Origin: Terramyces sp. JEL0728 | Lineage: Eukaryota > Chytridiomycota > Chytridiomycetes > Rhizophydiales > Terramycetaceae | Length of the DNA: 64,000 bases | Direction: 5' to 3' | NCBI GenBank assembly: GCA_027603945.1 | Contig: JADIIU010000042.1 | Span: 40,135 to 104,134 of the forward strand | Part shown: piece after piece, positions 429-32,507 of the stretch | Layout: each line of letters begins with the position of its first letter | Numbering within the stretch: the stretch's first letter is position 1 | The notes under the pieces: generated by a model | The model's input: only the letters and a program-made list of their open reading frames with translations | The model's database searches: none | What the model was told of the DNA's origin: nothing | Translations under genes and position numbers: made by a program

Positions 429-1122
429 ATGGGACAGATCAGAGTCATTAATCATCCAATATTCCTCGAGAAATTGTCAAGCGTCCGTGAAGAAAGTCTC
501 AATTCAAAAGAATTCAGGAATTTGATTGGCGAATTGACTCTCATTCTTGGCATCACTGCGACTGAAAGGCTAGATGTTGTCACTACAAAACAATTGCAGA
601 CCCCAATTGGCCCCTACACAGGAATTAAATTGAAAGATCAAATCGGAGTCTTCCCTATTTTGAGAGCGGGTCAGGGAATGGTTGACTGTAACTTTTTATT
701 AACATCAGCATTCTTGACTTTACTACCTGGTGCCAAAGTCCATCACTTGGGTTTGTTCCGTGATAAGGTAAGCGATCTTGACCGTAGACCACCCTCTTGC
801 CTGTTGAATACTACAACAAACTCCCTTCTGAATGCAAACTGGATGTTGGGTTCATTGTCGACCCCATGATTGCAACTGCCGGTATTGGATGTCTAATCTA
901 GGTACCGCTGTAGCTGCTGTAAACATTCTAAAAGATTGGGGATTAAAGAAGATTGTATTTTGTTCCATTCTTGTTTCCAAATCAGGCGTGGAAGCATTAC
1001 AACATGCTCATCCGGATATTGACATTATTGTCGGTCATATTGACGAGGAATTGACTGATAAAGGTTACATCTACCCTGGGTTGGGCGATGCCGGTGATCG
1101 TTTATTCAATACTTTACATTAA
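429..1122 (+). CDS. UPRT: Uracil phosphoribosyltransferase, bacterial type
   Basis: This enzyme converts uracil and PRPP to UMP (pyrimidine salvage, cytosol). Two 20-nt introns (768-787 and 882-901) must be removed. The spliced product is 217 aa, close to the usual length for the family. The first splice restores VEYYNKLP and the second restores the PRPP-binding loop DPMIATAGTAVAA. The C-terminal PGLGDAGDRLF uracil-binding segment is present. The N-terminus (INHPIFLEKLSSVRE..SKEFR) resembles bacterial Upp more than the long fungal or animal forms. Start ATG 429 is the first in frame. The stop codon runs into TAATAAAG, which may serve as the polyadenylation signal. It lies head to head with an unidentified gene 18 bp away and 64 bp upstream of XPB. 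Confidence 0.93.
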
Positions 1123-1186
1123 TAAAGTCCGCAATAATTGAAATTATACATGTATTAGCTTTTTTATTCTGAAAATTAATTTCCCA

Positions 1187-3524
1187 ATGGAAACTGAAGA
1201 TGACTCAGATCTCGAATTCGATAATTCAGAATTGAGTGAAAATTTAAAAATTGACCACGGAATCCGTCCACTATGGATAAATGAAGATAATCGCATTATA
1301 CTAGAAGGTTATTAGGGTTTAACCCCAAGCATTCAGTCCAATACATCAAGAAGCAGAAGATTTACTGCTAGCAATAGCCGAACCAATATCAAGACCTGCA
1401 AGAATTCACGAATATAAACTCACTACATATTCGTTATATGCGGCAGTGTCTGTTGGATTAGATGGGGACACAATTATTGAGGGGCTAGATAAACTCTGCA
1501 AGACTGCAATCCCTCATTCGGTAATACAATTCATCAAGTCTTCCACTTCATGTTACGGGAAAGTTCGTTTAATCCTGATAGAAAATCGATATTTTGTGGA
1601 GTGTGCTGAGGATGAATTGCTAAACAGGCTATTGGACGATTCGGATATAAAGCTAATACTGGAAAGGAATATGGCAAATGAAGATGTTGCAGTTCAGCCT
1701 GATAATCCTGAATTGCTGCCCATTGACTTATTTTCAGTATTTGACAGTGATATCTATTTGGAAGATGAATTGGGAGAGAATGACGAAATACACCCACAAA
1801 AATCAGAATCAATACATACTTTTGAATGTCTATTAGAAAAGATTAGATTAGAAAGAAAATTTGAAATCGAAAAGAATGATGTGGAAACCTTGAAAAAGAA
1901 ATGCGCAGATTTATCGTATCCAATGTTGGAGGAATACGATTTCCACGCAGACACCTTCAACCCGCACTTGGATTTGGGTAATCAAACGTCTAACAAAGAT
2001 TTAAAGCCCAACGCAAAACTAAGGTCTTACCAAGAGAGAAGTCTAGGGAAGATGTTTGGTAACGGAAGAGCACGATCTGGAATTATAGTCCTACCGTGTG
2101 GGGCCGGCAAGACGTTGGTAGGCGTTACAGCTGCCTGTACCATAAAAAAAAGTTGCTTAGTCCTATGTAATTCTAGGTAAATAGTATCTTATACATTAGC
2201 TTGAGTGTTGAGCAATGGACACGAGAATTTAAATACTGGACTACAATAAAGGATACTGATATTGCAAAATTCTCTTCCGAGTGCAAACAGCCATTTGAAC
2301 GGGACTCTGGAGTGCTAATATCGACATACACCATGTTGACACACAGTGGTGCGCGTGCGTATGATGCACAACAGATGCTCGATTTCATAAAATCTAGAGA
2401 GTGGGGATTTCTGCTGATGGACGAGGTTCATGTGGTTCCAGCAGGTATGTATGGCAACTAAGTAGATATGTTCAAAAAAACACTTACAATAATTTCCTCA
2501 CATGCCAAGCTAGGATTAACAGCGACTTTGGTTAGAGAAGATGAAAAAATTCACAATTTGAACTGGCTCATAGGTCCAAAGTTATTTGAAGCGAATTGGA
2601 TGGAGCTGGCGTCGCTTGGTTATATTGCAAATGTTCAGGTACTCATTTCATAATGAAAGTGCAGCGAAGTTTGGTGTGACATGACAAAACCATTTTATCG
2701 AGAATATCTTCGGCAACCATACAGGTAATAAAAATTAACTTTAGGAAGAGGCAACTGCTATATACAATGAATCCAAATAAAATCAAAGCGTGTCAGTATT
2801 TGATTGCCGTGCATGAGGCAATGGTAGAATGCAGCTTATTATAGGGAGACAAAATCATTGTATTTTCGGACAATGTTTTTGCGCTTAAAGTATTTTTGGA
2901 TTAACTTAGCACTATGCAGAAAAACTACAAAAACCATATTTGTATGGAGGAACCTCGCAATCAGAGAGAATCAGACTTTTGCAACAGTTTAGATTTAATC
3001 CAGCGTTAAACACAATCTTTCTGAGTAAAATAGGCGATACTTCGATCGACATACCAGAAGCAACTTGTTTGATTCAGATATCTAGCCATTTTGGAAGTAG
3101 AAGACAGGAGGCACAAAGATTAGGACGGATTTTGAGACCAAAGAAAAATTGCAATACCAAAGTTAACGCTTTCTTCTATACGTTAGTTTCTAAAGATACA
3201 GAAGAAATGTATTATGCAACAAAGCGACAACAATTTTTAATTGACCAAGGCTATGAATTTAAAATTATCACAAATATTCAAGGAGTAGAAGACGGGGTTT
3301 ATCAGCAATTACCCGAAGAATTGGCGCTGCTGAATACCGTTCTATTATCGCTGGAAACAGAGGAAATTGAAAATGAAATAAGTGATGACGAGCTCCCTGC
3401 AATGCCATACACGATGTTGGAATCTAAGATATCCTCAATATCTGGAGGAGACGCAATGGCATACATGGAATTCAGAGGAGGAACCAGTAGTGGAATGAGC
3501 CGAAAAGAAAGAAAGAAACTGTAA
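1187..3524 (+). CDS. ERCC3: TFIIH DNA helicase XPB (ERCC3/SSL2/RAD25)
   Basis: This is the 3'-5' DNA translocase of TFIIH, used for promoter opening and nucleotide excision repair in the nucleus. Seven introns: 1308-1329, 2177-2199, 2445-2465, 2639-2659, 2725-2744, 2824-2844, 2890-2909 (20-23 nt). The spliced product is 729 aa. Visible motifs in order: the damage-recognition-like N-terminal domain ([17 protein letters not shown], about residue 70), Walker A LPCGAGKT (about 300), DEVH box (about 400), RED motif VREDEK (about 425), FSDNVFAL, and helicase motif [11 protein letters not shown] (about 590). Each splice restores a conserved block, for example NSSLSVEQW and [12 protein letters not shown]. 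It lacks some of the N- and C-terminal length of the human protein (782 aa). Intron 1 begins GTTATT and contains TTAGGGTTTAACCC. Confidence 0.96.
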
Positions 3525-3812
3525 CCATTATAAATAATGGAGCAGCGGCAATAAAAAAGTTGTATTAGTTAGAAATGTTAAAGTGCTAGTCTCCTCATTA
3601 ATCTGTTTAAATTTTAATTAAGGAAAAGTATCAAAACAAATGCAATTTCAATAAAATTGGCATAGTTATTCCATGTCTTTCCTTGGTACTTGCTTGAATA
3701 CTTCAAGAGTCAAAATTAGATATATAATGATTGTCTAGGAAGAGAATTACTCATTGGACAAAGCATATCAAAATTAGGTCCATCTCAGTATATTTTGTTG
3801 GAAATAGTTGAA
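3525..3812. other. Intergenic, single-copy
   Basis: AT-rich sequence downstream of XPB. It contains TTATAAATAATGG just after the XPB stop, a likely 3'-end signal. I see no gene, repeat or RNA in it apart from the open frame that leads into the small ORF starting at 3813. Confidence 0.5.
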
Positions 3813-3959: not shown

Positions 3960-3969
3960 AATCGGATAT

Positions 3970-5395: not shown

Positions 5396-5835
5396 ATGGC
5401 AATCTTACCAAAGTCGTCAAACACAGCAATCGTCACATTGTCAAAATGGTCAACTGCTGCAAAAGAAAACCTCACACCTGTTGTTGTAGGAGCTAGAGAT
5501 GTTGCAATTTCTTCATATCAAACCACTGTTAAAGTTTTAGACAGATACCCGCCATTAAAGGTATATAACGTTTAAATTAGGCTTTTGTTGTATCCCTCGC
5601 GCTATTCTCATCAGTCCCGATAAGTTTCTTTCTCGGCTTTGCCGGAGTGAGCGGGGCTATTGTATTAGGTGTTGCTGGAACTGGCATTGTTCTAGTTCAA
5701 GGTACTTTGTTGGCATTTGGAGCCTTCTTTTTATTCTGGTGGTTACTTGGAGCTCTCTTCTTTGCAGGGTTAGCAACTTTCTGGTTCTCTGCTGGATACT
5801 TTGGCTTAAAGACCGCAAAGAAGCTTGCAGCTTAA
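5396..5835 (+). CDS. Promethin/LDAF1-like small membrane protein
   Basis: One 20-nt intron (5561-5580) is spliced out, giving 139 aa from ATG 5396; an ATG at 5336 would add 20 residues. The first half is soluble and Ser/Thr-rich (SKWSTAAKENLTP..., YQTTVKVLDRYPPLK). The second half is almost entirely hydrophobic (about residues 58-130), with Gly/Ala-rich paired segments such as LGVAGTGIVLVQGTLLAFG, ending KTAKKLAA. This layout fits the promethin/LDAF1 family of ER and lipid-droplet proteins, which form membrane hairpins and work with seipin. The family match rests on topology and composition rather than a signature motif. It is convergent with HEATR6, 89 bp apart. Confidence 0.6.
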
Positions 5836-5924: not shown

Positions 5925-8289
5925 TTATTTATTAATAATGGAATCAATTTTTGATTGAATCTCATTTTCTAGGGCAGAAAAGCCATAGTCGTCCATCAAA
6001 ATAATCTTGAAATGATCAATACAGTCTCTGACTGCACCAAGGAATTGCTTCACGTACTTTTGATCTTCATAAGTTGCCTTTTCTAGTACCAATCTGACGG
6101 AAAGAACAGACTTTAGCAATGTTTCCATGATAACCTGGATTGTTGTGGTGTAATTTTGGTTTGGGGTAGAGTAACTGTCCTTGTTGGAAACTTTAAGCGC
6201 ACTTATAGCAGCAATCTTGACTTTAAAGTTCATGCTGTGCTCTGCAGCATCGTTTAACCCTTTATAGATTAAATCTGTGTAATTGATTCTACTGCCAATA
6301 GGAAATCCGGCGGAACTCAACATATTCTTAATACAATGACATGCATTCCATCTTATCTAACGTTATACCTGAATACTTTGAATGGTCCAGCCCCAATATT
6401 CTTCAGGACAGAATCAACCGCCTGACTTGCTAAATGTGCATTTTGTTGCCATAAACGGCCATCAAATAATAATGCAACTAATCCTAAAGATCTGATGGCG
6501 TGTGTACGTACTTTTTCATGATCATTTGTACCAAGTATCGACACCCTGAACAGCTGGACAACAGTGTCTTGCAGGAAGTCCATTTTCAGTTCTACTAAAT
6601 TGCCAATTGCCCAACATGCTCTAATTCGCACTTTCAAAGTGGAATCTTGAGACAGTATAATCAACTTTTCGCTAAAATCATGCAAAATTGAAATGTCCTT
6701 GGTTAACATCATTTACATTATTGATCTTTGGTATATGCACAAAAGCCCCAATTGTGCCGCAACAAGCAGCTCTAACTTCAGGATGGTCATCTCCAGTGTA
6801 TGAGATGATGGTGGATAATAAGAACGCGTTTAATCTGTGAGGCATCTCTTGAATAAAAGCCATGGGTAACTGTCCAATAATTGTGCATGTTATAGTTCTT
6901 ATTGCATAAAATTCATGGTGAAATAAAGTGCTAGTTTTTTCAATCAGATCAAACCAAAATTTGTACGGCAATGCCACTGTATCATTAGCTGAATGACAAA
7001 ATTGCTCTAGCGCTTTTAAACTCCCAACAATTAATAGCGTTTCGTCAGCCAGCGAATTAAACAATACAGGACTAATGGAGCTCCAATTCTTCCACACCAA
7101 CTCAGAACATGATTTTGACAAAGATCTGATCAAATCAAGTACTGCTACATACATATTTTTGTCACCCGGCTGCTTAATAACATCTAAGGCATATTTGATA
7201 ATATTATTGTATTCTTCGTCACCGCTGTCGATTATTTCTGCCAGTGAACCCAGTATTTCAATAATAGCATGGTTTGTCGGCTGTTTTTGAATATAATTGA
7301 AGATTTCAGATATATAATCCTGATCTAAATTTCTAATCGGCGCATTTCTAACAAGCATATCCAGCAACTAAGCATTAATAAGTAAGGACCTTGTACAGAT
7401 GAGAGCAAACTTCGCTGTTTGATAGGTACAGGATCATTCGCAAAGTACTAGAAATTTGATTTGCTAATGACTCTTGCAAAGAAGTGAACGAGGTTGGTTT
7501 GCTTGAATAGCTTGCAATTGAAAGGTACTTTTGCGAATCTTCATAAAAAGATATTAGTATTTTTATCGCTTGAACCTTTGCATGATTATTCGGATGTGTA
7601 GTAATCAAATACAGTAGAGACTTGTCTTTGTAGTCAAAGAACTTAACCCAGTGAGCCTGCATCTGCTTCGGGCATTGTTTGGACAGGGCCAAGCAACAAT
7701 TCAGAGCGTATACAACCTGTCTACTCTCTTTTCCAACTTCGTTATCTGATTCTGAGTCGGATTCCCAAGTGTTTTTAGGTTTTTCGTATATAATTTCCAG
7801 CAAACGTCCTAGAAAACTGAAACAGTCCTTTGCGATTGTCTTATTTTCGTTGATCAATAATATTAAACTTTTCAGCGATACTGGGATTTCATTCTCCAGC
7901 TCGAGTTTGATTTTTCCAAGTAGTTTCGAGTCTTTTAATCCGATACAGCAATTACCTAAACAAACTATCGCTAGCCTGCCAACTCTGCTCTTGCTTTTCA
8001 AGGAAATTAATTTGTTTATAAATCGTTCCTGATCCTTTATTTGGTTAATTCGATCATACACCAGTGTAGCAGTGAATTTCATGAGTTCTATCGAAGGATC
8101 GTCCAGCAGCAGTAATAACCTGACAAAATGGGAATTGTTGGTATTCAATTTACTGGTTTCTTCCATAAAGTCCCTTTCTATCTGTCTTTTGTCTCTTTTA
8201 ATCTGAGCACCAGGTTGGTGTTTCTGGAATTCCTCCACTGGTGATTGGCTCTCCTTGGAATGTTGTTCCTGGCTCGGTATCATTAGCAT
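5925..8289 (-). CDS. HEATR6: HEATR6-like HEAT-repeat protein
   Basis: Three introns (7368-7389, 22 nt; 6698-6716, 19 nt; 6352-6368, 17 nt) leave 768 aa. The product is a stack of HEAT/ARM-type helical repeats throughout: LLLLLDDPSIELMKFTA, EVRAACCGTIGAFV, KVRIRACWAIGNLVE. After the last splice it contains KVFRWNACHCIKNML followed by NFKVKIAAISAL, the conserved C-terminal block of HEATR6. That family is poorly understood; HEAT repeats act as protein-binding scaffolds. The N-terminus has a basic stretch (KRDKRQIERD) typical of the DUF4042 region. The 17-nt intron is among the shortest here. The gene starts 88 bp from the divergent dynein LC8 gene, and the spacer holds a telomere-like motif. Confidence 0.8.
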
Positions 8290-8322: not shown

Positions 8323-8668
<346 letters not shown>

Positions 8669-9686: not shown

Positions 9687-10720
9687 ATGTCAGACTTGGA
9701 CAAGTTTCAAATTATTAATTCTAGACAAGTGCAGCAGTTATTAAGATGCGAAATACTACTAGAATCGCAAGTCAAAGAGCTATGTAACAAAGCAAGGGAA
9801 ATCCTTGTGGAAGAAAGTAATGTTCAAAAAGTTGATGCACCAGTAACAGTAATGACCGTTTAACCAGATATGTGGAGATATTCATGGGCAATTTTTTGAT
9901 TTGAAGGAACTATTGAAAGTGGGTGGAAAGTGTCCCGATACCAATTACTTGTTTCTGGGCGATTTTGTAGATCGCGGATTTTATAGTGTAGAAACGTTTC
10001 TATTGCTAGTAGCGCTAAAAGTACGATATCCTGATAGGGTAATTAATTTTTAATTAGATTACTTTGATAAGGGGAAACCATGAATCAAGACAAATTACTC
10101 AAGTGTATGGATTTTATGACGAATGTCTGAGGAAATATGGATCGGTGAACGTATGGAGATATTGCTGTGAAATATTTGATTATTTGTCACTCTCTGCTAT
10201 TATAGACGATAGGATTTTCTGCGTTCACGGTGGACTATCACCTTCGATTAATAATCTGGATCAAATTAGAATCATTGACCGCAAACAGGAAGTTCCGCAT
10301 GAAGGCGCGATGTGTGATCTGCTATGGTCCGATCCGGACGATATTGAAGGTTGGGGGCTGTCTCCCAGAGGCGCTGGATATCTGTTTGGCGGAGATGTTG
10401 TAGATACTGTAACCATTTTTAATTATAGTTTAATCATGCGAATAAAATAGAATTAATAGCACGAGCGCACCAGCTAGTAATGGAAGGGTACAAGCTAATG
10501 TTCAAGGATACCATTGTCACAGTTTGGTCGGCTCCAAACTATTGCTACAGGTGCATAGTGCTAACATAGATGTGGAAATGTTGCAGCGATATTGGAATTA
10601 GATGAGCATTTAAACAGGAACTTTAAGATATTTGATGCTGCACCTCAAGTTACGCCTTGTTAACGTTAGGATTCTCGTGGAATGCCAGCAAAGAAAGCAA
10701 TACCAGATTACTTTTTGTAA
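9687..10720 (+). CDS. PPP4C: Protein phosphatase 4 catalytic subunit
   Basis: A PPP-family Ser/Thr phosphatase that acts in DNA-damage recovery and centrosome/microtubule control. Five introns (9849-9867, 10039-10057, 10409-10428, 10551-10569, 10649-10669; 19-21 nt) leave 311 aa. All metal-binding motifs are present: GDIHGQ, GDFVDRG, RGNHESR, plus [11 protein letters not shown]. The tail PDYFL carries the C-terminal leucine that is carboxymethylated in PP2A/PP4. [13 protein letters not shown] and [13 protein letters not shown] favour PP4 over PP2A or PP6. It is 118 bp downstream of RCE1 and convergent with syntaxin A, 64 bp apart. Confidence 0.96.
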
Positions 10721-10784: not shown

Positions 10785-11928
10785 TTAGAACTGGTGGAGT
10801 GCAGCTGGAATTGCAATCCCAATGGCGATCAGGACAACCAATAACACCGCGATGCAGAGGATCCTCTAGAATTAACATTGGTAACCTTTCTGGTCTTTTT
10901 TTGTGTATGCAACGCTTTATCTAAGCTCTCAACTCCTTTCTCCACGTCCTTCACTGCGGTTTGTACGTGTTTGTTTGAATTATCGATATATTCACCCTGT
11001 GCAACTACTAATACAGCCATGTCAACAAATAGTTGGTGTAATTCTTTTATGCTCGATTCAATTTTTAACACGTCCTTGTGCGTTCGGTTTATATCTTCCA
11101 GTGCATTTCTTGCCTCTGCTTTTTGGGCAGCATTATCTACTTTGTGCGAAAACATTTGTCCCTGAATCATATTTTCAACTTCTGCAGGAGTTGCATTTGG
11201 TTTTGCGATTAGCGCCGATTTCTTCATTCTTTCAGTAAATTTGGTCTGATATTTTTCTTGTACATTCTTGTAATCTTCCAGTAATTGAACAAAATTTTTT
11301 ACGAGTACTTCATACTAACTTAGCGCAATTATACCTGCGCCGTGCGTATTGCAAAGTTTGGATCGCTTGGTTTCAATTGCTTGGTTCCCCTTTCAATATC
11401 TTTTAGAGTTTCGCGGACATGAGTTTGAACAGATTTCAACTTGTCCATCTTTTTGTCCAGCTCTGCTGAAATTGCTTTTGTTAGTTCTATCTACCATCGC
11501 CTTGTTCATCGGAAATAACTTGCATGGATCTGTGGTGGATTTCCTCGATTTCGTCAATAAGAAACTTGATTGAGGTGAGCGATTCCTTGATATTTGCTAC
11601 TTGTTCAAAGAATAATTCAATTGTTGGCGGGGCAGACACCTCTGGAACAACTTTCCCTTCTTTCTTTGGTTTCTTGCCGAAAACACTCTTTTTTCTTGTA
11701 ACCTCTTTCTGATCTTTGTTTTCCTCGCCTTCCGCATTCAGCGATTCGTTCGACTGCGTAAGAAAATTGTTACCTGGTTTGGTGTATTTACTTTGCTCTT
11801 TGACGTGAATTTTCGGAATAACGAGGGCGATTTCTTTGACTTTTCCTCTTCGATTTTTGGAACTTCCAAGGCTTCGTTCGACTCTGTTAATCTATCATTA
11901 CTTGCAAGTCATTTATTCTGTCTCTCAT
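10785..11928 (-). CDS. Syntaxin (Qa-SNARE) A
   Basis: A target-membrane SNARE for vesicle fusion. Five 20-nt introns (11882-11901, 11754-11773, 11475-11494, 11315-11334, 10866-10885) leave 347 aa. Order: start MRDRINDLQ, a basic Ser/Lys-rich segment (KKSPSLFRKFTSKSK), the Habc-type helices (PPTIELFFEQVANIKESL, then KMDKLKSVQTHVRETLKDIE), the SNARE helix (IESSIKELHQLFVDMAVLV, zero-layer Gln expected in VVAQGEYID), and a C-terminal membrane anchor (CIAVLLVVLIAIGIAIPAA). The layout matches plasma-membrane syntaxins (Sso1/syntaxin-1 class). A paralogue lies 102 bp upstream on the same strand. Intron 1 must end at the second of two adjacent AGs to keep the frame. Confidence 0.92.
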
Positions 11929-12030: not shown

Positions 12031-13110
12031 TTAGCGAATCTTACTTAATACTGAAGGCACCGCGACACAAACGGCAATAATTGCCACTATAAGGAATATG
12101 ATAATACACATTTTCTAATTTAAGAGCCGGCTACCTTTCTAGTTTTCTTTTGTGTTTTTACTGCCTTGGTCAAGGCATTCACACCGGCTTCAGTGTCATT
12201 CACGGCGCTGTCTACGTGCACAGCGATCTGGTTGATCATTTCCCCTTGAGCAGCAACCATTACTGCCATATCCATAAAGAGCTGTTGTAGTTCCAAAATG
12301 CTTTTTTCGATTTTGACGACTTCTTTGTGTTTGTTTTGAATATCTTCCAAAGCCCTCTTTGCTTCCTGGCGTTGTCCGGTATTAACAATCTTGGTTAAAT
12401 TGGATTATACCTGTTTGGCAAACATTTGTCCTTGTTCTCCATCTGTCATTTTTTCAATTTCTTCTTTGGTTGCGTTTGGTTTCACTCAAATAAGCTTGTA
12501 AATTACCAATTAATGCTTGCCGTTGCATTCGATCTTTGAATTTGGATTGATACATTTCTTGGATCTTTTTGTACTCGGTCATAACTTCGAGAAAGCTCTT
12601 CATCAATACCCCATGCTGTCGTTAGCCCTCAAATACTTGAGAAGTTCTAATAGAATTGTCTGTTGAAGTAGGATCTTTTTTTTGTAAGGATTTGTTTAAA
12701 GCATCCATTTCTCATGTTAATCCCACATACCTTTGAGCTTGTTTCTGACGTAGGTTGTTTGCTTATTGGCTTTATCCATAGCACTGTCTAACTCTCTTGC
12801 GATTTCTAAACGAATTAAACTATAGTTACCAGCGCTTTCCTTTTCGCTCGTTACATTATTGAGCGTTCTGTCGTGAATAACTCGAATTTCTTCAACTGAT
12901 ATTTTGATAGTGGCAATACTCTCCTTTAAATTTGCAATTTCTTCAAAGAACTGATTCATTGTTGCTGCCGTATTGGTTGGAGATTCAACGGCTTTGTCTT
13001 TTCCCTTCTTTCCCTTTTTCTTTGAAGATTCATCTTCAACGGGCTCTCCGTTTGCAGGCTTGATAGATTAATGAGTATCCTACTTGTAAATCTAGAGTTC
13101 TGTCTCTCAT
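12031..13110 (-). CDS. Syntaxin (Qa-SNARE) B, tandem paralogue
   Basis: Six introns (13059-13083, 12711-12730, 12616-12636, 12485-12506, 12390-12410, 12115-12134; 20-25 nt) leave 316 aa. It starts MRDRTLDLQ, like its neighbour, and has an acidic/basic linker (EDESSKKKGKKGKDK). Habc helices begin at MNQFFEEIANLKESIA. The SNARE helix is IEKSILELQQLFMDMAVMV with AAQGEMINQI, followed by KKTRK and a short anchor (CIIIFLIVAIIAVCVAVP). The two proteins share intron positions at the start exon and before the anchor, so they arose by local duplication older than the 30-kb event. It is 49 bp from the divergent kinesin start. Confidence 0.92.
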
Positions 13111-18744: not shown

Positions 18745-19160
18745 TTATTTCTTGGATTTTTCATCCTTCTTCCCTTTCTTTGTACCACGGACTTTCTTGT
18801 CACGGTTCTTCTTTTCTTTACGTTGTTTAGAAGAGACAGTCTTCTTTTCTCCAAGACCATGACGGATAAGTCTGTATTTTGGTTCAAACTTCTTTGCTGC
18901 ATCAAGAGTGTCATAAACCAATGCAAATCCAGTTGATTTACCACCACCAAATGCGGTACGGAATCCAAATACAAATACATTCTACATTAAATATCAAATA
19001 CTTCTGATTCAGATTTGTAAAGTTTAGCTAATTTATCACGGAGGTCTGCTTTTGAAACATTTGGACGTCCTGGGTGAATTACATCGATAATCATTTGTCT
19101 GCGTTGCAATAGACGGTTAGTCAAGAATTTGCGAGTGCGAATGGTGACTGAATCAGACAT
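18745..19160 (-). CDS. RPS24: Small ribosomal subunit protein eS24
   Basis: Component of the 40S ribosomal subunit. One 20-nt intron (18983-19002) leaves 131 aa, the usual length. Features: [19 protein letters not shown], the family signature [18 protein letters not shown], and, after the splice, [19 protein letters not shown]. The tail is basic and nucleolar-like ([19 protein letters not shown]). The start at 19160 fits the family; an in-frame ATG upstream at 19208 would add residues not found in eS24. The two copies are identical at the nucleotide level. Confidence 0.95.
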
Positions 19161-19471: not shown

Positions 19472-21160
19472 ATGAGGTGGAATGCATGTTACAACGTAGA
19501 TCCTTGTTGGCTAGATAATTGGGTCACAATTGTACTACCAGAAAGCGTGGAACGTCACAAAAGCAGGTGATTTGTTGCGGCAGCGAAGCGGGAAACTCTT
19601 TCTAAATCTCCAAATGTCCACTATTACAAATTTCATCAGCAACGCTCATACTCCGGTCTCTGGAGAAACGTTGCCAGTTCAATCTCCTGGAACAGGCAAA
19701 ACCATTGCCCATGTCCAGTTGTCTACTCAGGATCAAGTAAACAGTGCTGTTGAACAAGCTCACTCTGCTTTCTTGTCTTGGAGGTGATTTTCATTAATAT
19801 AGTAATCGCACTGTAAAGGATCGTGTGCAATATCTCATTAGATTCCACCAGCTGGTAATTAAACACAAGGATGAACTGGCAGATTTGATTGTCCTTGAGC
19901 ACGGAAAAGTATTTAGACTTAATGTAGACCAAAGAAGAAGCCCTTGCTGAAATTGCCAAAGGAAATGAAACCGTAGAATTCGCCATTTCATTACCACAGC
20001 TTATGCTAGGACATACCCTAGAAGTTTCCCGTGGAGTATATTGCCAGGATGTTAGAAGACCTCACGGTGTAGCGGTGTCCATTGTCCCATTTAGTACGTG
20101 ATGTTAATTCAGATTTCCCTTTCATGGTTCCAATGTGGACTCTTCCTATCGCAATTGCTACAGGAAATACATTTATCTTGAAGCCATCGGAGAAGGTGCC
20201 CTTGACTATGAATAAAACAATGGAATTGATCAAGGAGGCTGGATTCCCTGAAGGAGTGGTCAATATTGTAAACGGAACTGCAAACACCGTGCAGTTACTC
20301 TGCGACCATCCTAAAACTAAAGCAGTTACTTTTGTTGGGACCTCTCATGTTGCAGAATTGCTATCTCACCGCTGCAGATTATTAAACAAGAGAATTATTG
20401 CTTTGGGAGGGGCTAAAAACCATTTGGTAGCTTCAAGAGACTGTAATATTGATATGGCTTCATCTGATATCGTTGCTTCGTTTACAGGATGCAGTGGGCA
20501 GCGTTGCATGGCTGCTTCAGTCTTGCTGACTCTGGGAAAACAACCCGAGCTGCTGAATGCGATTGTTCAAAAAGCGAAAGCATTTGTACCTGGACAGGCA
20601 GGCAAAGGTGTAATGGGCCCAGTAATTGATCAAGTATCTAGAGATAAAATCATTGGCTATATCAATGATAGCGAAAAGACTGGTGCCCAAATCCTGCTTG
20701 ATGGTCGTACATGGCTGAAGGATGAAAAATTGGTAGCTACAGGAGGTTTCTGGGTCGGGCCAACCGTAGTTTTGCACAAAAATAAGCAAGATAAAGCTTT
20801 GCATGACGAAATCTTTGGTCCAGTTATCAGTATCTATGAATGTGAAAACCAAGAAGAAGCAATTGCTATGGAAAACGAAAATCCCTATGGAAATGCTGGT
20901 AGTTTTGTTTAACAATAGCATGTATCTATACAAACAGCGGTGCTATTGCTGATTGGTTTACAAAAAGATTCTCGGCTGGAATGATTGGAGTGAATATTGG
21001 TGTCCCTGTTCCAAGAGAGCCATTTTCATTCGGGGGTATCAACAGAAGCAAGTTTGGTGATTTTGACATTACTGGCCATGGCGGCATGGAATTCTTTACT
21101 TCATCGCGAAAGACTACTACCAAGTGGGTCATTCCAAAGGAAGCAAACTGGATGAACTAA
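19472..21160 (+). CDS. ALDH6A1: Methylmalonate-semialdehyde dehydrogenase (acylating)
   Basis: This mitochondrial enzyme converts methylmalonate or malonate semialdehyde to propionyl- or acetyl-CoA in valine and pyrimidine breakdown. Introns 19496-19514, 19784-19802, 19909-19927, 20094-20112 (19 nt each) and 20902-20918 (17 nt) leave 531 aa. The first exon encodes only MRWNACYN. With the next residues it forms a basic presequence (QRSGKLFLNLQMSTITNF) suited to mitochondrial import. Conserved blocks: SIVPFNFPFMVPMW, ILKPSEKVP, SFTGCSGQRCMAAS (catalytic Cys), EIFGPVISIYE, NPYGNAGT completed by the 17-nt intron, and GVNIGVPVPREPFSFGG. The start was chosen because upstream frames are closed. Both copies are identical. 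Confidence 0.93.
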
Positions 21161-21237: not shown

Positions 21238-22668
21238 TTAATATGTACCAATAACGCCCTTCATCACTTTGTACATCAACGAAGACAACTGATGAGGTTC
21301 GGTTTGATACAATGACATGATAGTGCTCATAGCTCCACAGGTAGCAATTACATCCAAATGAGGGATGGGGATCAAAGCGCCGTTTTGAATCATTAAAGTA
21401 TAAAGAGATTGCAAACCTTTTGGAAGGACATACATTGCTAATTCAGCTCTCTTTGGTTTCTGCTCAATCAAGATTGATAATCCAGTGATAATTCCTAAAT
21501 AATAGAACAGGTATTTTTCAACTTGTTTTGGGAAAAGCCCTCTATGCAAGCACAATCCAGTTTGAAACATGTAAACGTAACTGGCGATGAAACTAGAAGA
21601 TATGGCGGTGGATTTGATTATCCTTGCCAGAGATTGTAGTGGACTAGGTTAGTAATCATTTACTTTTCAATAACGGATTTGAACTTGAAGAGCAGAGTTG
21701 GGACAGCATTCAATGAAAAGTACACTGGTGACATTTCCAAAAAGGTCTTGTACCATACGCCAGCCTGATACTTGACACAGCTATTTTCTCTTGCATGAAT
21801 TGCACTACAAGGCAAATGCGGAGCGATGCCATTGTTTTCCTTGATATATTCAAATAAGCTCTTTGTGTTTTCTGGCGTTGCATGAGTTTTTACCAATGCG
21901 GCTTTTAGCGCTTCAATATTTGCAGGGAAATATCCGGCTTGATTCCCTTTGGTATTTTCCCTGTTCAGCTCTACAATGACTTTTGGGACTCTGCCGTGCT
22001 GAACAATCCAGCTGTAATCTAATTTAATTTAAAACTACATTCTCTAGGGATTGTCTCTGGATGCATCGTATATGCGTACATGATTGAGGCAACCGCGAGT
22101 GAGAATAATAGCGTGTCTCCGTGAGGCATAGAGAATAAGTTGCGCTGTTTAAGAGCGTTCTTTGCTCCTTGAAGAGCTCTCATTGAAAATTGTTGAGCAA
22201 TCGCAACTCTGTTCTCTGGCGATTCAATCAGCACTGCTAACCCAGCAATTGCTCCGGCAAAAGCACCATTGCGCTTTAGATTCTTTTTCGTTTTGAAATG
22301 TAGAATATTTGAAATCAATTTCCAGGTCAGAGAGAAACTAGCAATCATCTTTGCAAAGCGTTGGGTTTCAAATCCCATCGAAGCTTTCAAAGCACTGAAT
22401 ACCGTAGTCCTATGTAAATATTTGTGTACCTTCCGCGAAAGACTGCAATCAATCTAATGATAAAAGATACACCCCCGCGAAGTAGGAAAGCAACAAAGAA
22501 CGATCTTGAAGCTCCTTTGAGCGAATGCTTTATGATTTCCTGGATGTTTTTCCATTCTGGTGGTGTAACTGGGGGTGTTTTTTCTACCAGCTTTATGCTT
22601 TCGTCAGACAGCTGCTTTTCCACCGCTGGTTTATCCTTGCTGTCCTCGTTTCCCAGCTCTTTGGTCAT
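21238..22668 (-). CDS. TMEM135: TMEM135-like membrane protein
   Basis: Three introns (22410-22429, 22019-22035, 21644-21663; 20, 17 and 20 nt) leave 457 aa. The N-terminus is charged. The first membrane-associated block is KGASRSFFVAFLLRGGVSF. Then come NGAFAGAIAGLAVLIE, the paired central segments PHGDTLLFSLAVASIMYAYT and YYLGIITGLSILIE, and a C-terminal repeat of the same pattern (PHLDVIATCGAMSTIMSLY). The duplicated G-x-x-AG-x-x-VLIE units and a Cys-x(n)-Cys middle (HLPCSAIHARENSC) match the TMEM135 family, which sits in peroxisomes and mitochondria and affects organelle division and lipid balance. It is convergent with ALDH6A1, 77 bp apart. Confidence 0.85.
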
Positions 22669-23412: not shown

Positions 23413-26400
23413 ATGGAAGATATCATAGACATAAGGAAAGAGATTGGAAATCTGGTGTTTGAAGGATCAGTTTTCAATGACACGCCAATCAAGCAATCGG
23501 ATAATCTGGATTTTGTAATTATAATTTAAACATTAGTCGTCTACCCCGAGAGTTGTACTAAAAGGTACTTTGAATATTAACAAAGAACTGGAAGATCCAG
23601 GCTCCTTATTTCCGTCGACAATGCACACAAAACCCACTTCAAACAACGATTTAACATTCCCATCTAGCGCAACTAGCGACAAGCGGTTCTCCACAATGAT
23701 TCCAAACAGATCGAGAAACGGTTCGATTAATGAAATTGGGCCGGATATTCCCGAGGAACACAACAACTCTGCGAGAAACAGTGTGGAAAATTTGAATGTA
23801 AAAAGCGGCTTTGGATCAATAGGCTCGCTAACGAATTTATTTAAAAAGAAATCAAAAGGTTTGTGTCAATTGATTGGTTAGGAATCGAAAAGTCACCTTC
23901 AGGAAACTCGATATCACAGCCAAGCCCTGCAAAATCAGTAAATAGTTTAAATCAATCCAAAACAAATATATTTAGGCCTGATCTGAGCACTAGGGATGAT
24001 GATAGTCGAAGTATTATTAGTGGTAAGTAAAAATTTACAAAGAACTGCATTCTGAGAGTCAATTTGAAGTTTCGCCAACTGGAAATGACGCTTTCAAACA
24101 AATTACATACTCCATGTTATCTACGTCCAATTTATCAATAGTGGCAAATATTAAATGGCGCGATCAATCAGTAACCATGAAGCTCGCGCAATCTAAACTT
24201 GTGTCTGAAATTATATTAGAAATAGTCCACAAACTCCAGTCGCTATCAACAGCAAATGCAGCTACGCTAGATGAATTTGATCACTCAATGTTTCTACTTG
24301 GCAAGAAAGATAGATATTCCCCAGGAATGCAATCTTGGCTAAACCCGGATTACCAACTGACAACATATGATATTCAGCAAGGAGTAACTAGTATTGATTA
24401 TAGGATGACTTGCTTTTAAAACACGCCACAGATGTTGGGACATTGCTCATTAATGCTCCTCCTGCTCTAGAAAATATGAAAATCAAATATGATTTTGACT
24501 GTACAGTAGCTGAAACTATCAAAGTGTTACGAAATAGGCTGCAGTTTGAAAATAATGTCACTTGTGGTTTATATCATCCAAGGTTGGGCATGTGGTTGGA
24601 TACTCAAAAAACGCTCTTCTCTTACGACTTGGATCACAACGTACCAATTGAATTTAGAGTGCAAGCAAACGAATTCTTACTACGCATTTCCCTATTGGAT
24701 TTCGACCAGAAGATTGGCATCAAAGTACTACCGACATTTAGGGTATCAGGTAATTCTTGGTATAATTTAGATGTGTTGGCAATTATAAGCTACCAATTGT
24801 TGAATAGAAAGTTAATTCCAACAAAAAGAGGGAGATACGGCTTGTTTGTCCCTTCTTCAAAGAGTTGGATGAGGGGCCCTGCTCAAATCGATGAATACAC
24901 AACAATCAAGACTGAAATCTTGGAATTTTCTATCCAGCACGAACTATGTAAAATTTCATTTGGAGAAGATGCTGTAGATATATATGTGGATTCCACTTGC
25001 ACAGTCCAAGATGTAACATCATTATTGCAAATCAATAGCGATATTCCTGTAGATAAAAAATATACTTTAGTGAAAGCTAACCGAGAGTATTTCAAAGAAA
25101 CCGACTTGATATGGACTGCTTTGAAGGAAATGTCTGTAAACGATATATTTTATTTGGAACCACTGCCTGAGCAGTATTCCTTTTCTTGCAAAAACTATCA
25201 AGACTTTACATATCACTGCGAATTGAACTGTTCAAAGCCTTTGGCTTACCATTTCCCTATCCTGGCCATGAAATTTGGATTCCCAGAGGCTTCATTAAAA
25301 CAAGTATTATTGGATGGGAACAGTACCAATTTATTTATATAGGCCTCGATATAAACACTACCATTTCAAAGCTGGATATACCCTTGGATTCGAAAATGGT
25401 ACTCGTTTTTTCAGGCGACTTTGCAGAAAATATTGTAACTATTTGCTTATATGCAGGACGAGCTCAACAGATTGTCAGTCACTCAAACTAAAGCTTTTGC
25501 ACAAATCAAAACCTCTGCTTTAGATAATTTGGTGAAAACACTCACTGGCTCGCAGTCTGATGGATCCGTAGCATGTATTATGATATTAATTGCAGATTTG
25601 GACTTTATCAAAACATTTTTATTAACATATCAATCATTCATTGATGCACAATCATTATTGAAAAAACTAATTAAACGATACTCTGTGGTGAATCTCAATG
25701 GAAGCAGTTGGAGTGATTTCGAAAAGGTTAGAAAGCCAATCGAGTTGAGGGTTTGCAATGTGCTGCTTCAATGGATCAAGAAATTCCCTTTCGATTTTAT
25801 GCATCCCATTGATGGAATCGCGAATTGCAACGCAGCTCTTGCATTCGTGGACCAAGTCATTACCAGAGACCATCCACAAATGGCCAAGCAGATGCGAAAG
25901 AATCTAACGAAAATGAGGGATGGCCACAACTTGGGATTAAAGAAAGGTCTATCTTACAAGGTAGTGCGATAGTTAATTTAGTCTCACAAAGAAGAAATGC
26001 AAGGAGAGGCTGGAAATATCATTATATTTGGCTACTCTGCTGAAGATATTGCCAATCAACTGACTCTTGTCGAATCTGGTTTATTCACAGAAATTATCGT
26101 AATTTTCTTTAATTCAGCCTTCTGAGCTATTAAATCAGGCATGGGCTAAAAAAGAAGCGCAGATTAAAGCCCCTGGAATTATCGCCCTAACCAGACGGTT
26201 TAATTCAGTTGCTTGTTGGTGCGCACAATCTATTTTGAATCTAAAAACTCCGAGAGCGAGAGGGGAGAGGCTGGGGAAAATAATTGATATTGCCAATGTA
26301 ATTTGTTTTAATTTAGTTCCTTGCGGCCAAAAACAACTATTCTACTCTGATGGCCATCATTGCTGGTATTAACAAAGCGTGCATTAGCAGATTAAGACTC

Positions 26401-26813
26401 ACTACCAAAGAAGTAAATCCAAAATATACCAAGGTAAATCATTTTAACAGGAAGCGAAGAGCAGAGTTGGAAACCCTCATGTCTGCTCAGAGTTCCTATA
26501 AAAACTACAGAGCCAGCATCCATTCGATAGCCCCGCCTTGTATTCCATACATTGGAACTTATTTAACAGACTGTAACATTTATTAATACAAGTAACATAT
26601 ATTGAAGATGGAAACCCGGATTTGATTGACGGACTCATCAACTTTTCGAAAAAGGAATTAATCAGCAAAGTAATTAGAGAAATAATGGAATACCAGCAAT
26701 TCCCATACACTATAAAACCCCATTCCGAGTTGATTGCTTGTTTATCGAGCATTTCTGAAGCTTCAGAAGGATTGGAAAAGCAAATGTGGACTCAAAGCAA
26801 AGCATTAGAGTAA
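23413..26813 (+). CDS. RasGEF with tandem ubiquitin/talin-F0-like N-terminal repeats
   Basis: Exchange factor for a Ras- or Rap-type GTPase. Eleven introns: 23515-23536, 23859-23881, 24023-24042, 24384-24403, 25323-25342, 25435-25456, 25961-25981, 26099-26117, 26298-26316, 26434-26454, 26573-26592. Product 1057 aa. A Ser-rich leader (1-190) is followed by three or more similar blocks of about 80-100 residues, each with a hydrophobic strand, then GLYHPRLGMWLDTQKTLFSY- or MFLLGKKDRYSPGMQSWL-type segments, like the beta-grasp F0 domain of talin. Then come the REM/RasGEFN domain (FIKTFLLTYQSF) and the catalytic CDC25 domain ([50 protein letters not shown]). Intron 10 is 21 nt without a stop, so it may be retained (+7 aa). 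Confidence 0.88.
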
Positions 26814-26857: not shown

Positions 26858-28379
26858 TTATTTGGAAACAAGTTCTTTGCGAGATTTCACAATATGCAAT
26901 TTAGGATCGTCGACACTTCGTTGATGCATTGGCACGTAATCTCTCTTTTGTTCGCCAACATAAACTTGTCGTGGTCTGAATATTGGAATTTGATCAGCAA
27001 TTTGCTCTTTCCAGTGGGCCAACCATCCTGCAGTTCTAGCAAGGGTGAACAAAACAGGGAAAAAATCAGTTGGAAAACCCATCATCTTGTAAATAATACC
27101 AGAGTAGAAATCCACATTTGGATACAGATTTCTCTTGATGAAATATTCTAAAATTAAAAAGACACTTACCGTCACTCAAGGCGATTCGTTCCAATTCCAT
27201 TGCTATGTCAATTAAATCGCTGCGTCCCATAACCTCAAATACTTGGGCTGATATTTTCTTCAAGATCTTTGCTCTAGGATCATAAGATTTGTAGACTCTG
27301 TGGCCAAAACCCATCAATCTTCTCTTTTTAGCTTTTACTTCCTAGCATCAATTTCATATTACTTCAATAAAGGAAGGGATATTTTCAACTGACCCAATTT
27401 CTTCAAGCATCTTTAAAGCAGCCAGTGATTAATCTTAAATTACTTCGTTTGCCCCGCCATGAGATGGTCCATACAATGCGGATGACGCTCCTGAGAGGCA
27501 AATAAATGGATCGATACCGGTGGATGCCATTTGTCTCATTGCAGCTGTCGAACAATTCAGTTCGTGATCGGCGTGTAAAATGAAAATGACATCGAGTGCA
27601 TGTGCCAACTTGGGATGCGGGACATAATTCGTTTCCGACAGTCTGGATTACTTTACAATTACCTATCAAGCATATACAAAAAGTTTTCAGCTAACATTAG
27701 TGATAGTTACTATATTCCAGTTTTTCTGAGGGCATGTTGTAGCTTCTGCCAATACGATGTCTATAAGCGCATGCAGCGATCGTAGGCAGTTTGGCCAAGC
27801 ATCTAAAGATTTGTTTGTTTACAAATGCTTCGTCTTCATAAATCTCTGTTCCTTGCAAAGCAGTGTTTGCTTCCGGATGGAGAGTAGACAGGGTCTATAT
27901 TAAATAATAGTACTGCGAGGGAAGAGATCACCATCCCCATAGGCTACGTTAATAAGCTAAATACGTGTGCGTCATAGCGGAAACTCTGCTGTTAGTTATA
28001 TTTACCCTCAAGTAATCAATCAAGTTTTCATGGATATTGGTATGTCTCATAATTCTAGTTGACCATTTCTACGTTAGCGAATCAATACATCAAATTGATC
28101 CTTTGTCGGTAGATTGCCGAAAATCAACAAGTACGAAACTTCCAAGAACGAAGAATTGTTTGCCAAGTCTTCAATATCGTATCCTCTATATCTAAGAATC
28201 CCCTTGTCCCCGTCAATATAACTAATCGCCGAACGACAAACAGCAGTGTTCAAATACCCGTTGTCGTACACGGTTAGTCCCAATTTTGCAAATTCCTTGG
28301 TATCTATCATGTCCTCGTTGATCGTAATTGGAAATGCTTCTCCGGTAAGACTGTCTGTAACTTCAAGTACCCGAGACAT
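26858..28379 (-). CDS. Citrate synthase, bacterial/peroxisomal type
   Basis: Condenses acetyl-CoA and oxaloacetate to citrate. Nine introns: 28069-28088, 27986-28005, 27944-27964, 27895-27913, 27691-27710, 27643-27662, 27423-27443, 27342-27362, 27148-27169. Product 445 aa. Key blocks: [45 protein letters not shown] (catalytic His), [33 protein letters not shown] (second His), [13 protein letters not shown] (Asp). The sequence type is that of bacterial GltA and of plant or Dictyostelium peroxisomal enzymes, not the animal mitochondrial one. There is no clear presequence, and the C-terminus (ELVSK) is not a canonical PTS1. The intron at 27423-27443 ends in TG rather than AG if the conserved AALK is kept. 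Confidence 0.93.
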
Positions 28380-28441: not shown

Positions 28442-29488
28442 CTAAGCAAGCTCTTTTTGTGAAGTGGAAAGAGATCGCATCCTATTGATCAATCTCACAG
28501 CGTTAACGGCCTTGCGAAGAGTGGTTTTGGCACTGAAATTCTTTCTTACGTTCTGCAGAATATCGGTGTTGTTTTCAGTAGCTAACCATGGATGGACTAA
28601 CGCTTCTTTAACGCTCATTCTCTTTGTTGGATTCACTAACAGCAACTTGGAAATGAAATCCTTGGCTTCTTTGGAAATGAACGACCAATTTTCTTCATCA
28701 AACTCGTATTTGCCATTCACAATTGCGTTGTAAAGAACTGGCACTGAATTGGTTTCACCGCCCCAGAATGGAGTATATCTATAATCAAGTCATATTACCC
28801 GCAAAGCAGCACATACGAGATGACACCTACACTCCACATGTCAACCGGCTTTCCGTGTCCAGATTCTTTGAGAATTTCAGGCGCAACGTAATGAGGAGTT
28901 CCACAAGATGTTTTCAGGAATTCATTTTGATGTACAACTCTGGATAACCCAAAATCAGCTAAAAGCAATTCCGCATCTTCCGCGTCCGTTCTGAACAGCA
29001 GGTTTTCCGGTTTTAAATCTCTATGTACAATATCTAGATAAGAATTTGAATACCCATGTCATGCAAGTAGTTTAGCGCAGACAAGATTTGTGAAACAATT
29101 TTGGCAGCATCTTTTTCGCCGTAACTGCCTTTTGATAGGATCCGATCAAACAATTCGCCGCCTGTAGCCAAGTCCATTACCAAATAATAGTGGTCCTTGT
29201 CGGTACATAAATCCACTAGTGAAATAATGTGCGGATTGCGAATTTTTGACAGAATATCAATTTCCTGTTTGACAGCTTCCTCCTCCCCCTTCATTTTCTT
29301 TTTGTTGATTATCTTTACTGCAAATTTCTGTGAATCCGTCTTTCTAGTAACTATTTTTACAGTTGCTATGTTATTCCGGTCGTACCATAGGCCCCCTTTC
29401 CCAATTCCTTCCCAATGAAATATTTCATTTCGAACTCTGAAATTTTTGAATCATGCTTTGGTTTGAACAAATTCTTTAGGGCTTTCAT
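28442..29488 (-). CDS. Calcium/calmodulin-dependent kinase-like Ser/Thr kinase
   Basis: Three 20-nt introns (29366-29385, 29034-29053, 28779-28798) leave 328 aa. Kinase landmarks: glycine loop ELGKGAYATVKIV (made by splicing), [10 protein letters not shown] (catalytic Lys), [31 protein letters not shown] with a Thr in the activation segment, and [20 protein letters not shown]. The tail after HPWLA is basic and amphipathic ([20 protein letters not shown]), as in the autoinhibitory and calmodulin-binding tail of CaMKI. The length also fits CaMKI. It could instead be another CAMK-group kinase. It lies 62 bp downstream of the citrate synthase start, same strand. Confidence 0.9.
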
Positions 29489-29600
29489 TAGAGACTTTGG
29501 AAAAGTTTCGTTGGTGGCTTTCGTACCTGTGAACTGGTGGCTGTACTTTGCAGTGATGTTCCTATGGCTATTGAGACTGGGAAAGAAGGGAAATAAAAGG

Positions 29601-32507
29601 TTATTTTATTAATGATTGCAACGTAACTATCTGCTTGTTCTTTTTGCGATCGTCTGGCAGTTTATCAATGTAATCAGCCACAAGCGTGCTCAGCTCGCTT
29701 TCCATCTCAAACACCTCCAGAGCCTGCTTTTTGGGAAGGGACAGCAGCAGCTTGAGCGAAGACGGAAACAGAGACTGTAATTAAAAATGAGTTACCACGC
29801 AGCATTTGGCGAATCCTTCCCACAGCGGCTTAACTAGCCATATCTTTTTGCTGATCAACCTGGTTTGTTGGTCAACAATAAAATTCGTGAGATCGGGGTA
29901 GGTTTTGAGGGCTAAAATGATACTTCTCATTAGCAGTGGCGATAATTTCGCTTGATCAACCAGTTTCGTAATTACAATCGCAATTATTTCCTGGCTGAAT
30001 ACCAGCGTTTGAAGAAAGCAGATATCAATGGCTTCGTTAACAACATATACCTTTGCATTGCTTCTTTACCGTTACATTTTCCAACAGATGAAGCTTGATT
30101 AGCAGTTCATTTGGTGTAATCAACTGCTGGTCATCCTTTAGCTCAACCAGAGAAACGAAAACATCCTTAACCAGATTCTTTTGTTCATCGCTGTCATCAA
30201 GCGATTCAACTAGCTTGAATAGCTGGTTCAGGACAGTTGGCTTGTCAAAGTAGTTAATTATTAGCAGGAGGAAGCTAAAGTCCAAATCTTTTTCGAGATA
30301 GACTTTCTTTGCGATTTCAATTGCTTTGTCTTTTAGGTTTTCATTCCTGAGCAAGCTTTTAATTAAAACCAGCAGTAGAGATTCAGCACCGCTCGGATAG
30401 GTTTCTATCAGCTCCAATAGAGTGTCCACTTCCCCATGCAGCGAATCGAAAAGCCCACCGCAACTATCGAGCACTACTGGCGCAACTTTGCTGTCAAATG
30501 AAGGATAGAATTCAAACAGACTAGTGTTAAGGAAAATATACTCTTTCAGCAATGCCGGCTTTGACGAACAGCAACCCAAGAATAAATCCAAATAGGATGG
30601 AATGCTCTCTTGCTTTTCACTTAGTTTCCTTAAATTTTCTTGTGCAAAATTAATTATTTTAGTAGTTAAGCTTTCATTGGAAGGTATAAATACTTTTAGC
30701 GACTCGACCGCAATTTTTCTGCTCTCATTATCTATAATAAGTATAAATTACCGGCTAGTGTAGTGAAGGATAATAGATGCTCCAAGCAAACATTTCGAGA
30801 AGACGGCCGGTTCTGTATCAAATCGCGAAGGGTAGTGATTCCCTAAAATCAATTATAGTTACCAATTGCTTTTTTTCATCGTTATTACAAAACTCGAGAA
30901 CTTTAGAAATTGCCAAATCAGTCATTTCTGGTAATTCAACCAAGAACTTGGTAAATAGCCGCTCTTCTTGGTTTTCATTTTCCAACAGCTCCAAAAACTT
31001 ACCAAGCCATATTTGATATTCATTTCCATTCAAGTACTCTTCAAACAGCCAATATAATGCCAGTTCTATTCTTGCCGAGAGATTATTTCCAATAAAATCA
31101 AGCACATACTCCTTCACTTTCTCATTGCTATTTGATCGAGTCATCAATCGCGCAGAAACAAGCAGCCATCCAAATCTACCTGCGACATTTGTGTCATTTT
31201 TAACCATCGCGGATTTGTCAACTTTTTGAAAGTAGCTATCCATTTGCAGTACTCTACCAAGGCAGTCCTGAACAATATCTTGCTTTTCTTCGTCCGTTAA
31301 TTCTTTTGTTTGGTTTAAAATTTGATCGATATCTATTTCTACAGCATCTTCCATATTTTCATTTTCGGCTTCGATTTCGTCTGTGTCTGCAATTGTTTGG
31401 ATGATAATCGGGATCAAGAAATCCAAAGGTATATTTGGTATCAATGGGGTGATTTCGCTTGGTGCAATGCTTCTAGATGTTGCAGGCTCTGGTTCAACTT
31501 TAGTTTTTTTGAATTCATATTCCAATTCTTCTCTATCCAGTATTCTCTTTTCTCTGGACTGCTTGATCATGACATCCCTGGCATATCCCATTTCTCCTAA
31601 TATATGAGCTATTCTAGCATGCGACTGTTCGATCTGCGGTATACTATCGTCAATCTAGAGATTACTCCAAGCTACTCAATAACACCACTTTAAAATTCCG
31701 ACGCACATTCCTCTTTTGTGTCTCAGATCCAGGAGTCAAAATTGGATTAAATTTCAACACTAATTCTATTAAAGGAGTAGAAAAAGTGGGACACTCCTTC
31801 ATGATGGAATGAATATGGTTAAGGGCAATACAAATAAATACAGAATTAGATCTACATTAGCAATGAGTACAGGTGCGGGTTTGCTAGTGTAAGAACAAAT
31901 CTGTTTAAAACAGCAACGGCATGTTCATGTAACTGTTGTTTAGCCAAATATGGATGATTTGGGGGAACCTGGAATAAACTACAAAGTACCGTGAAATTAC
32001 AATTGGAAATAACCATTTGTCTTAAAAAATATGCCGCGCTAGCTCTTAGCCCCATGTTCGGTGCATCATATAACGAATCGATTGTGACGTTGAGTTTGTT
32101 AATAATTGCCCAGTATGTAGGCTGTCCAGGTTGTCTTGCCAGAATGTTTAAAGCTACTGGATACATATTTGCATACGCAACAATGGCATTTTTGATCAGC
32201 TGTACCTGTTCAATTAAAACAACTATTGCTTCAATACAGGACGCAAGGACTGGAAATTGATATTCTGGAGAACAGTTCAAAGCGCAATCTGTTACATGTG
32301 GTATTGTATCCAAAATTGACAACTTGACCCTGTCCGACGAATTGGGATCTTGAATCTGATATTAGCAAGTGGTACTTGGCTGAGTATTAGTGGCAATAGC
32401 TCTTTTGCGAATCTGTCTGGAATGTCTGTGTAGTGAATAGAGTTCCTAATTGCTTCAAATTTTTCATCCTGACTTCCAGATTTCAAAGTTGAGATTATGG
32501 AATTCAT
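29601..32507 (-). CDS. SYMPK: Symplekin (Pta1-type pre-mRNA 3'-end scaffold)
   Basis: Scaffold of the cleavage/polyadenylation factor and histone pre-mRNA processing complexes. Seven introns (32356-32375, 31852-31870, 31644-31665, 30843-30862, 30732-30751, 30032-30050, 29775-29795; 19-22 nt) leave 921 aa. The N-terminal HEAT domain carries RVKLSILDTIPHVTDCALN and then MYPVALNILARQP. The middle has the conserved basic block REKRILDREELEYEF. The C-terminal domain shows GITTLRDLIQNRPPSSRNV, FLQTLVFSQEIIAIVITKLVDQ, and KPLWEGFAKCC followed by LPSSLKLLLSLPKKQ-type sequence, as in human symplekin. The start at 32507 is the first ATG; the next gene ends 54 bp away. Confidence 0.9.

What the first reader, a model, noticed from the sequence alone, without database searches (positions are those of the whole stretch)
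429..32507. Genome-wide 17-25 nt spliceosomal introns
84 introns are needed to reconstruct the 19 conserved proteins in the single-copy region and copy 1. Most are 19-22 nt, start GTA (a few GTT/GTC/GTG), carry a TAA-type branch-like element 3-6 nt before the end, and finish AG. These are among the shortest spliceosomal introns known; comparable sizes are reported from chlorarachniophyte nucleomorphs and some ciliates. Here they occur in an ordinary nuclear gene set with TTAGGG-type telomerase context.
Basis: partly seen in the sequence, partly recalled or inferred. Interest (0 to 1): 0.85.

Follow-up and report, generated by a model that had tools for sequence, protein, structure and literature searches.

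The report
Twenty-letter introns in a chytrid fungus
Most genes sampled from this chytrid fungus are interrupted by removable segments (introns) only about 20 letters long, close to the shortest known, although the splicing parts that could be checked look ordinary.

Summary
An independent gene finder introns of 19-25 nt at 429-32507, and 377 in twenty 10-kb samples from 20 contigs, 318 of them 19-21 nt. Spliced alignment to known proteins ranks GT..AG first of 256 dinucleotide pairs in 6 of 6 genes. Actin, with four 21-22-nt segments removed, aligns gap-free over 375 residues.

Consensus: GTAATT, TTAAY/CTAAY, branch A at nt 14-15, 5-6 nt before the end. At least two of the 84 calls are wrong and at least two real introns are missed.

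The suggested spliceosome reductions were not seen: U2 and U5 snRNA, SF1, U2AF65, half of Prp8 and Cwc25 look normal; U1 and U6 were not found; SF3b was not searched. The Cwc25 GGG plug, reported lost in Stentor, is intact.

The public annotation of this assembly contains some of these introns and mangles others. My searches found no paper describing them. No RNA evidence was available.

The parts
688..708 (+). UPRT intron 1, 21 nt
   Evidence: recovered with no boundary rule against PDB 1i5e (same length, GT..AG at shift 3)
768..787 (+). UPRT intron 2, 20 nt
882..901 (+). UPRT intron 3, 20 nt
1308..1329 (+). XPB intron 1, 22 nt (also in the public annotation)
1978..1998 (+). XPB intron 2, 21 nt, no in-frame stop; the public protein P0001 keeps it as GNQTSNK
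2177..2199 (+). XPB intron 3, 23 nt
2445..2465 (+). XPB intron 4, 21 nt
2639..2659 (+). XPB intron 5, 21 nt
2725..2744 (+). XPB intron 6, 20 nt
2824..2844 (+). XPB intron 7, 21 nt
2890..2909 (+). XPB intron 8, 20 nt
9704..9724 (+). PP2A-like phosphatase intron 1, 21 nt
   Evidence: blind fit, shift 4; not used in the fit with GT..AG imposed
9849..9867 (+). PP2A-like intron 2, 19 nt
10039..10057 (+). PP2A-like intron 3, 19 nt
10409..10428 (+). PP2A-like intron 4, 20 nt
10551..10569 (+). PP2A-like intron 5, 19 nt
10649..10669 (+). PP2A-like intron 6, 21 nt, less certain (C-terminal end; the alignments gave 27 or 39 nt here)
5396..5695 (+). small membrane protein gene, called introns 5561-5580 and 5647-5668 (the second doubtful)
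   Evidence: de novo only
6353..8289 (-). HEAT-repeat/importin-like gene (name from my reading, not searched), called introns 7368-7389, 6698-6716
   Evidence: de novo only
10829..11928 (-). coiled-coil, syntaxin-like gene (name from my reading, not searched), called introns 11882-11901, 11754-11773, 11475-11494, 11315-11334
   Evidence: de novo only
12045..13110 (-). similar neighbouring gene, called introns 13059-13083, 12711-12730, 12616-12636, 12485-12506, 12390-12410, 12115-12134, 12087-12107, 12051-12072 (last two doubtful)
   Evidence: de novo only
13431..15921 (+). kinesin gene, called introns 13500-13520, 13854-13876, 14010-14029, 15027-15046, 15794-15812
   Evidence: Pfam Kinesin one stretch, 316.8 bits
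15941..18408 (-). telomerase reverse transcriptase gene, called introns 18366-18384, 18333-18353, 17228-17246, 17010-17030, 16729-16748, 16454-16472, 16432-16451, 16329-16347
   Evidence: Telomerase_RBD, RVT_1 and TERT_C matched
18982..19001 (-). ribosomal protein eS24 intron, 20 nt
   Evidence: S24e profile 1-93/95 in one stretch
19614..21160 (+). methylmalonate-semialdehyde dehydrogenase, introns 19784-19802, 19909-19927, 20094-20112, 20899-20918; the call 20766-20786 is judged false
21660..22668 (-). unnamed gene, called introns 22410-22429, 22019-22038
   Evidence: de novo only
23413..26813 (+). RasGEF gene, introns 23515-23536, 23565-23585, 23859-23881, 24023-24042, 24384-24403, 24750-24770, 25323-25342, 25435-25456, 25575-25595, 25961-25981, 26099-26117, 26298-26316, 26434-26454, 26573-26592; the call 26413-26433 is judged false
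   Evidence: eight 20-23-nt introns are in the public annotation of copy 2
27148..28379 (-). citrate synthase, introns 28069-28088, 27986-28005, 27944-27964, 27895-27913, 27691-27710, 27643-27662; one more, 27148-27169, missed by the gene finder
28442..29488 (-). CaMK-like kinase, introns 29366-29385, 29034-29053, 28779-28798
   Evidence: Pkinase profile 3-263/263 in one stretch
29781..32507 (-). symplekin/Pta1 gene, introns 32356-32375, 31969-31989, 31852-31870, 31644-31665, 30843-30862, 30732-30751, 30521-30541, 30032-30050

Best explanation
These are ordinary U2-type spliceosomal introns shrunk to about 20 nt throughout the nuclear genome of Terramyces sp. JEL0728. Shown from sequence: GTA(A/T)TT at the 5' end, YTAAY branch motif, AG end; branch A at intron nt 14-15 and 5-6 nt before the end; removal restores conserved proteins. 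Inferred: SF1 and then U2 pair with the branch motif, the branch A attacks the 5' site to give a 14-15-nt lariat loop with a 5-6-nt tail, and the first AG is used. There is no room for a polypyrimidine tract after the branch point, so U2AF must act through SF1, the AG, or the U-rich loop upstream. The machinery is inferred to be largely standard because every component that was found is canonical as far as examined. The lower size limit would then be set by how close the three intron signals can be packed rather than by remodelling of the splicing factors.
For: Spliced alignment, one boundary pair imposed at a time: GT..AG first of 256 in 6 of 6 genes. With no boundary rule, the same lengths with GT..AG within 4 nt are recovered for actin 4 of 4, XPB 8 of 8, UPRT 3 of 3 and PP2A 5 of 6 introns. 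Spliced actin aligns gap-free over 375 residues to PDB 4efh. Length scan against 11 pairs of the same letters: GT..AG best at 18-22 nt only, of 10 lengths tested. First run with only GT..AG imposed: 136 introns of 15-40 nt, 96 of them 17-23 nt, of which 77 have GTA, and a T-A-A-Y block emerges near the end. Real model: 377 introns and 157 kb coding; seven decoy models: 72-203 introns and 115-124 kb. Whole-genome pattern GTAA..CTAAY..AG: 2659 against 1286 for the reversed pattern. Tandem copies: of 73 called introns compared 17 differ, all 17 keeping GT and AG; substitutions 1.35% in introns, 0.90% in coding, 1.48% elsewhere. Intron length differs by 1 nt between near-identical copies in three introns. 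U2, U5, SF1, U2AF65, Prp8 and Cwc25 genes present.
Against: No transcript was available, so splicing is inferred. U6 was not found: two Rfam hits below the gathering score lie inside what I read as a coding gene, and two core patterns with up to 3 mismatches gave none. U1 was not found. In the window alone GT..AG ranked only 14th (15-26 nt) or 6th (15-40 nt) of 256 under the weak codon model. Decoys still yield 72-203 introns, so individual de novo calls without homology support are uncertain; I judge at least two in the window false. One of these did not stop the Pfam match from being continuous, so a continuous Pfam match proves little for a single intron. U2AF65 and RasGEF blind alignments recover only part of their introns, and the blind XPB fit adds two spurious end pieces.
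Confidence: 0.95

Rival explanations
1. The segments are not removed: they are sequencing or assembly indels, or the genes are decayed copies.
For: No RNA evidence; the assembly shows duplicated near-identical stretches.
Against: Inserts share one length class and three ordered motifs; housekeeping genes such as actin carry them; both tandem copies carry them in the same places.
Confidence: 0.01
2. They are removed without the spliceosome: DNA excision as for ciliate internal eliminated sequences, tRNA-type enzyme splicing, or ribosome bypassing.
For: The size is near the edge of what spliceosomes are known to handle (PMC10245619, passages read).
Against: The GT-YTAAY-AG order is that of spliceosomal introns, and the genome's own U2 has GUAGUA; SF1, U2AF65, Prp8 and Cwc25 are encoded.
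Confidence: 0.02
3. Tiny introns are only one class and many longer introns were missed because the final model allowed at most 26 nt.
For: A model that allowed 60 nt called 95 of 583 introns longer than 26 nt in the sample; the RasGEF fit used three of 28-50 nt. Introns longer than 70 nt were not tested.
Against: In the codon test GT..AG has no advantage at 41-66 nt (rank 81 of 256 in the sample, 152 in the window). With up to 70 nt allowed and GT..AG imposed, the introns of actin, XPB, UPRT and U2AF65 were all 19-23 nt; PP2A gave one 39-nt piece at its poorly conserved end. In RasGEF the 50- and 45-nt fits fall where the public annotation has 20- and 21-nt introns. The 60-nt model was wrong in XPB where homologues decide.
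Confidence: 0.07

Closest known systems
Chlorarachniophyte nucleomorph introns, 18-21 nt (cited in PMC10245619, passage read)
   Same: Almost the same length class; GT-AG and many per genome (recalled)
   Different: Those are in a relic algal nucleus; here the nuclear genome of a fungus
Heterotrich ciliate introns (Stentor, 15-16 nt; PMC9505925, abstract and sections 2.1-2.6 read)
   Same: AU-rich, GU-AG, branch A about 5 nt before the end, canonical U2 GUAGUA
   Different: Here 4-5 nt longer (loop 14-15 against 10-11 nt), a clear YTAAY branch motif (no strong consensus in Stentor), introns in 107 of 127 called genes (18% of genes in Stentor), and the Cwc25 GGG plug kept (lacking in Stentor)
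Mikrocytid introns, 16-17 nt (PMC10245619, passages read)
   Same: Uniform tiny spliceosomal introns
   Different: Mikrocytids are parasites with strongly reduced spliceosomes, and Mikrocytos mackini has 224 predicted introns; here about 28,000 by extrapolation, and no reduction seen in the parts examined
Paramecium/Nyctotherus ciliate introns, about 25 nt (start of the abstract of PMC5014332 in a search listing)
   Same: Genome-wide ultra-short introns in a free nuclear genome
   Different: Longer; ciliates, not fungi

Membership tests
U2-type (major) spliceosomal introns | GT...AG ends | tested here: met
   GT..AG first of 256 pairs in 6 of 6 genes
U2-type (major) spliceosomal introns | Branch motif able to pair with U2 GUAGUA | tested here: met
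   TTAAT, TTAAC, CTAAT, CTAAC are the four most frequent motifs; U2 with GUAGUA, 140 bits
U2-type (major) spliceosomal introns | All five major snRNAs encoded | tested here: inconclusive
   U2 and U5 found; U1 and U6 not found; U4 not searched
U2-type (major) spliceosomal introns | Core proteins SF1, U2AF65, Prp8 | tested here: met
U2-type (major) spliceosomal introns | Excised from RNA as a lariat | not testable with these tools
   needs RNA
Tiny-intron genomes (15-25 nt as the norm) | Most introns in a narrow class below 26 nt across the genome | tested here: met
   318 of 377 are 19-21 nt, in all 20 sampled loci; that model allowed at most 26 nt, up to 60-70 nt
Stentor-type splicing (steric-clash avoidance model of PMC9505925) | Cwc25 without the glycine-rich N-terminal plug | tested here: not met
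   Cwc25 begins MGGGDLNLKKSWHP, identical to solved CWC25 homologue chains
Stentor-type splicing (steric-clash avoidance model of PMC9505925) | Non-conserved N-terminus of Isy1 | not tested

The most novel reading that the evidence does not exclude
A free-living fungal lineage (family Terramycetaceae) independently reduced essentially all its spliceosomal introns to the packing limit of their three signals, about 20 nt, while keeping a standard spliceosome including U2AF and the Cwc25 plug. That would show that 14-15-nt lariat loops and a missing polypyrimidine tract need no special splicing factors.
Probability: 0.4. Interest if true: 0.82.

Novelty: new member of a known kind. Interest (0 to 1): 0.7.

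Why it matters
The tiny-intron lineages that I read about are ciliates, relic nuclei and parasites with reduced spliceosomes. A chytrid (free-living as far as I recall for this genus, from soil) with about 20-nt introns in most genes, and normal-looking U2, SF1, U2AF65, Prp8 and Cwc25, would make the question 'how short can an intron be, and what in the spliceosome must change?' directly testable, and it argues that loss of the Cwc25 plug is not required at this size. There is also a practical side: the public protein set of this assembly drops or retains pieces around these introns in both genes that I checked. The TFIIH helicase XPB lacks 75 residues in four blocks, one of them just after the Walker A motif, and gains 7.

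Tried and rejected
Rejected: the RF00026 (U6) hits, which lie inside what I read as a coding gene. Rejected: a reading that PDB 9r8v held a near-identical chytrid Prp8; its high score comes from two matches in a chain that holds the N-terminal part twice. Weak: the first codon-only test, and the window-only run of the second, where AT-rich pairs score higher than GT..AG; the coding model was trained on long open frames of the same sequences that it was tested on. The model that allowed introns up to 60 nt merged neighbouring genes, so 26 nt was used afterwards. Telomere tracts: none at 17 contig ends of 400 bases. Literature searches for a prior description: nothing listed describes tiny introns in Terramyces, Boothiomyces or any chytrid. 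Only open-licence PMC papers are held, and some listings were cut (40 of 88, 15 of 21, 25 of 933). Passages on introns in three further papers (PMC13391722, PMC11649378, PMC5364385) say nothing of such introns; the second does not mention chytrids. Two PDB searches returned nothing at my strict E-value limits; the first was repeated with a looser limit and gave hits, the second was not repeated. No structure prediction was made.
Full report
What the window is. It is contig C42:40135-104134 of a 15,016,339-base, 231-contig assembly. The best hit of the spliced XPB protein is HDV01_005232 of Terramyces sp. JEL0728, on a contig of 104,134 bases, the exact length of C42; the RasGEF gene also hits a Terramyces protein, HDV01_005255, on a contig of the same length. 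Taxonomy: Fungi, Chytridiomycota, Rhizophydiales, Terramycetaceae.

Noticed in passing
window 3970-33730 and 33731-63481: A 29.8-kb head-to-tail duplication, 98.7% identical, whose second copy ends about 520 bases before the contig end; it may be real or two haplotypes joined by the assembler. Its edge lies in a Ser/Ala-rich repeat gene.
   Followed up: partly
L010/L011 (C199 and C111), L044/L045 (C30 and C33): Further near-identical stretches on different contigs, suggesting uncollapsed haplotypes or recent duplications in the assembly.
   Followed up: no
whole genome: No U6 snRNA core found with two patterns at up to 3 mismatches, although U6 is (recalled) among the most conserved RNAs; it could be absent from the assembly, divergent, or itself interrupted by a tiny intron.
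   Followed up: partly
window 15941-18408: A telomerase reverse transcriptase gene with eight called tiny introns; the 17 contig ends examined carry no TTAGGG tracts.
   Followed up: partly
window 8325-8335 and 38048-38058: Isolated AACCCTAACCC element in the corresponding intergenic place of both copies, possibly a promoter element.
   Followed up: no
public protein P0001 (HDV01_005232): The deposited XPB protein lacks 75 residues in four blocks and has a 7-residue intron retained.
   Followed up: yes
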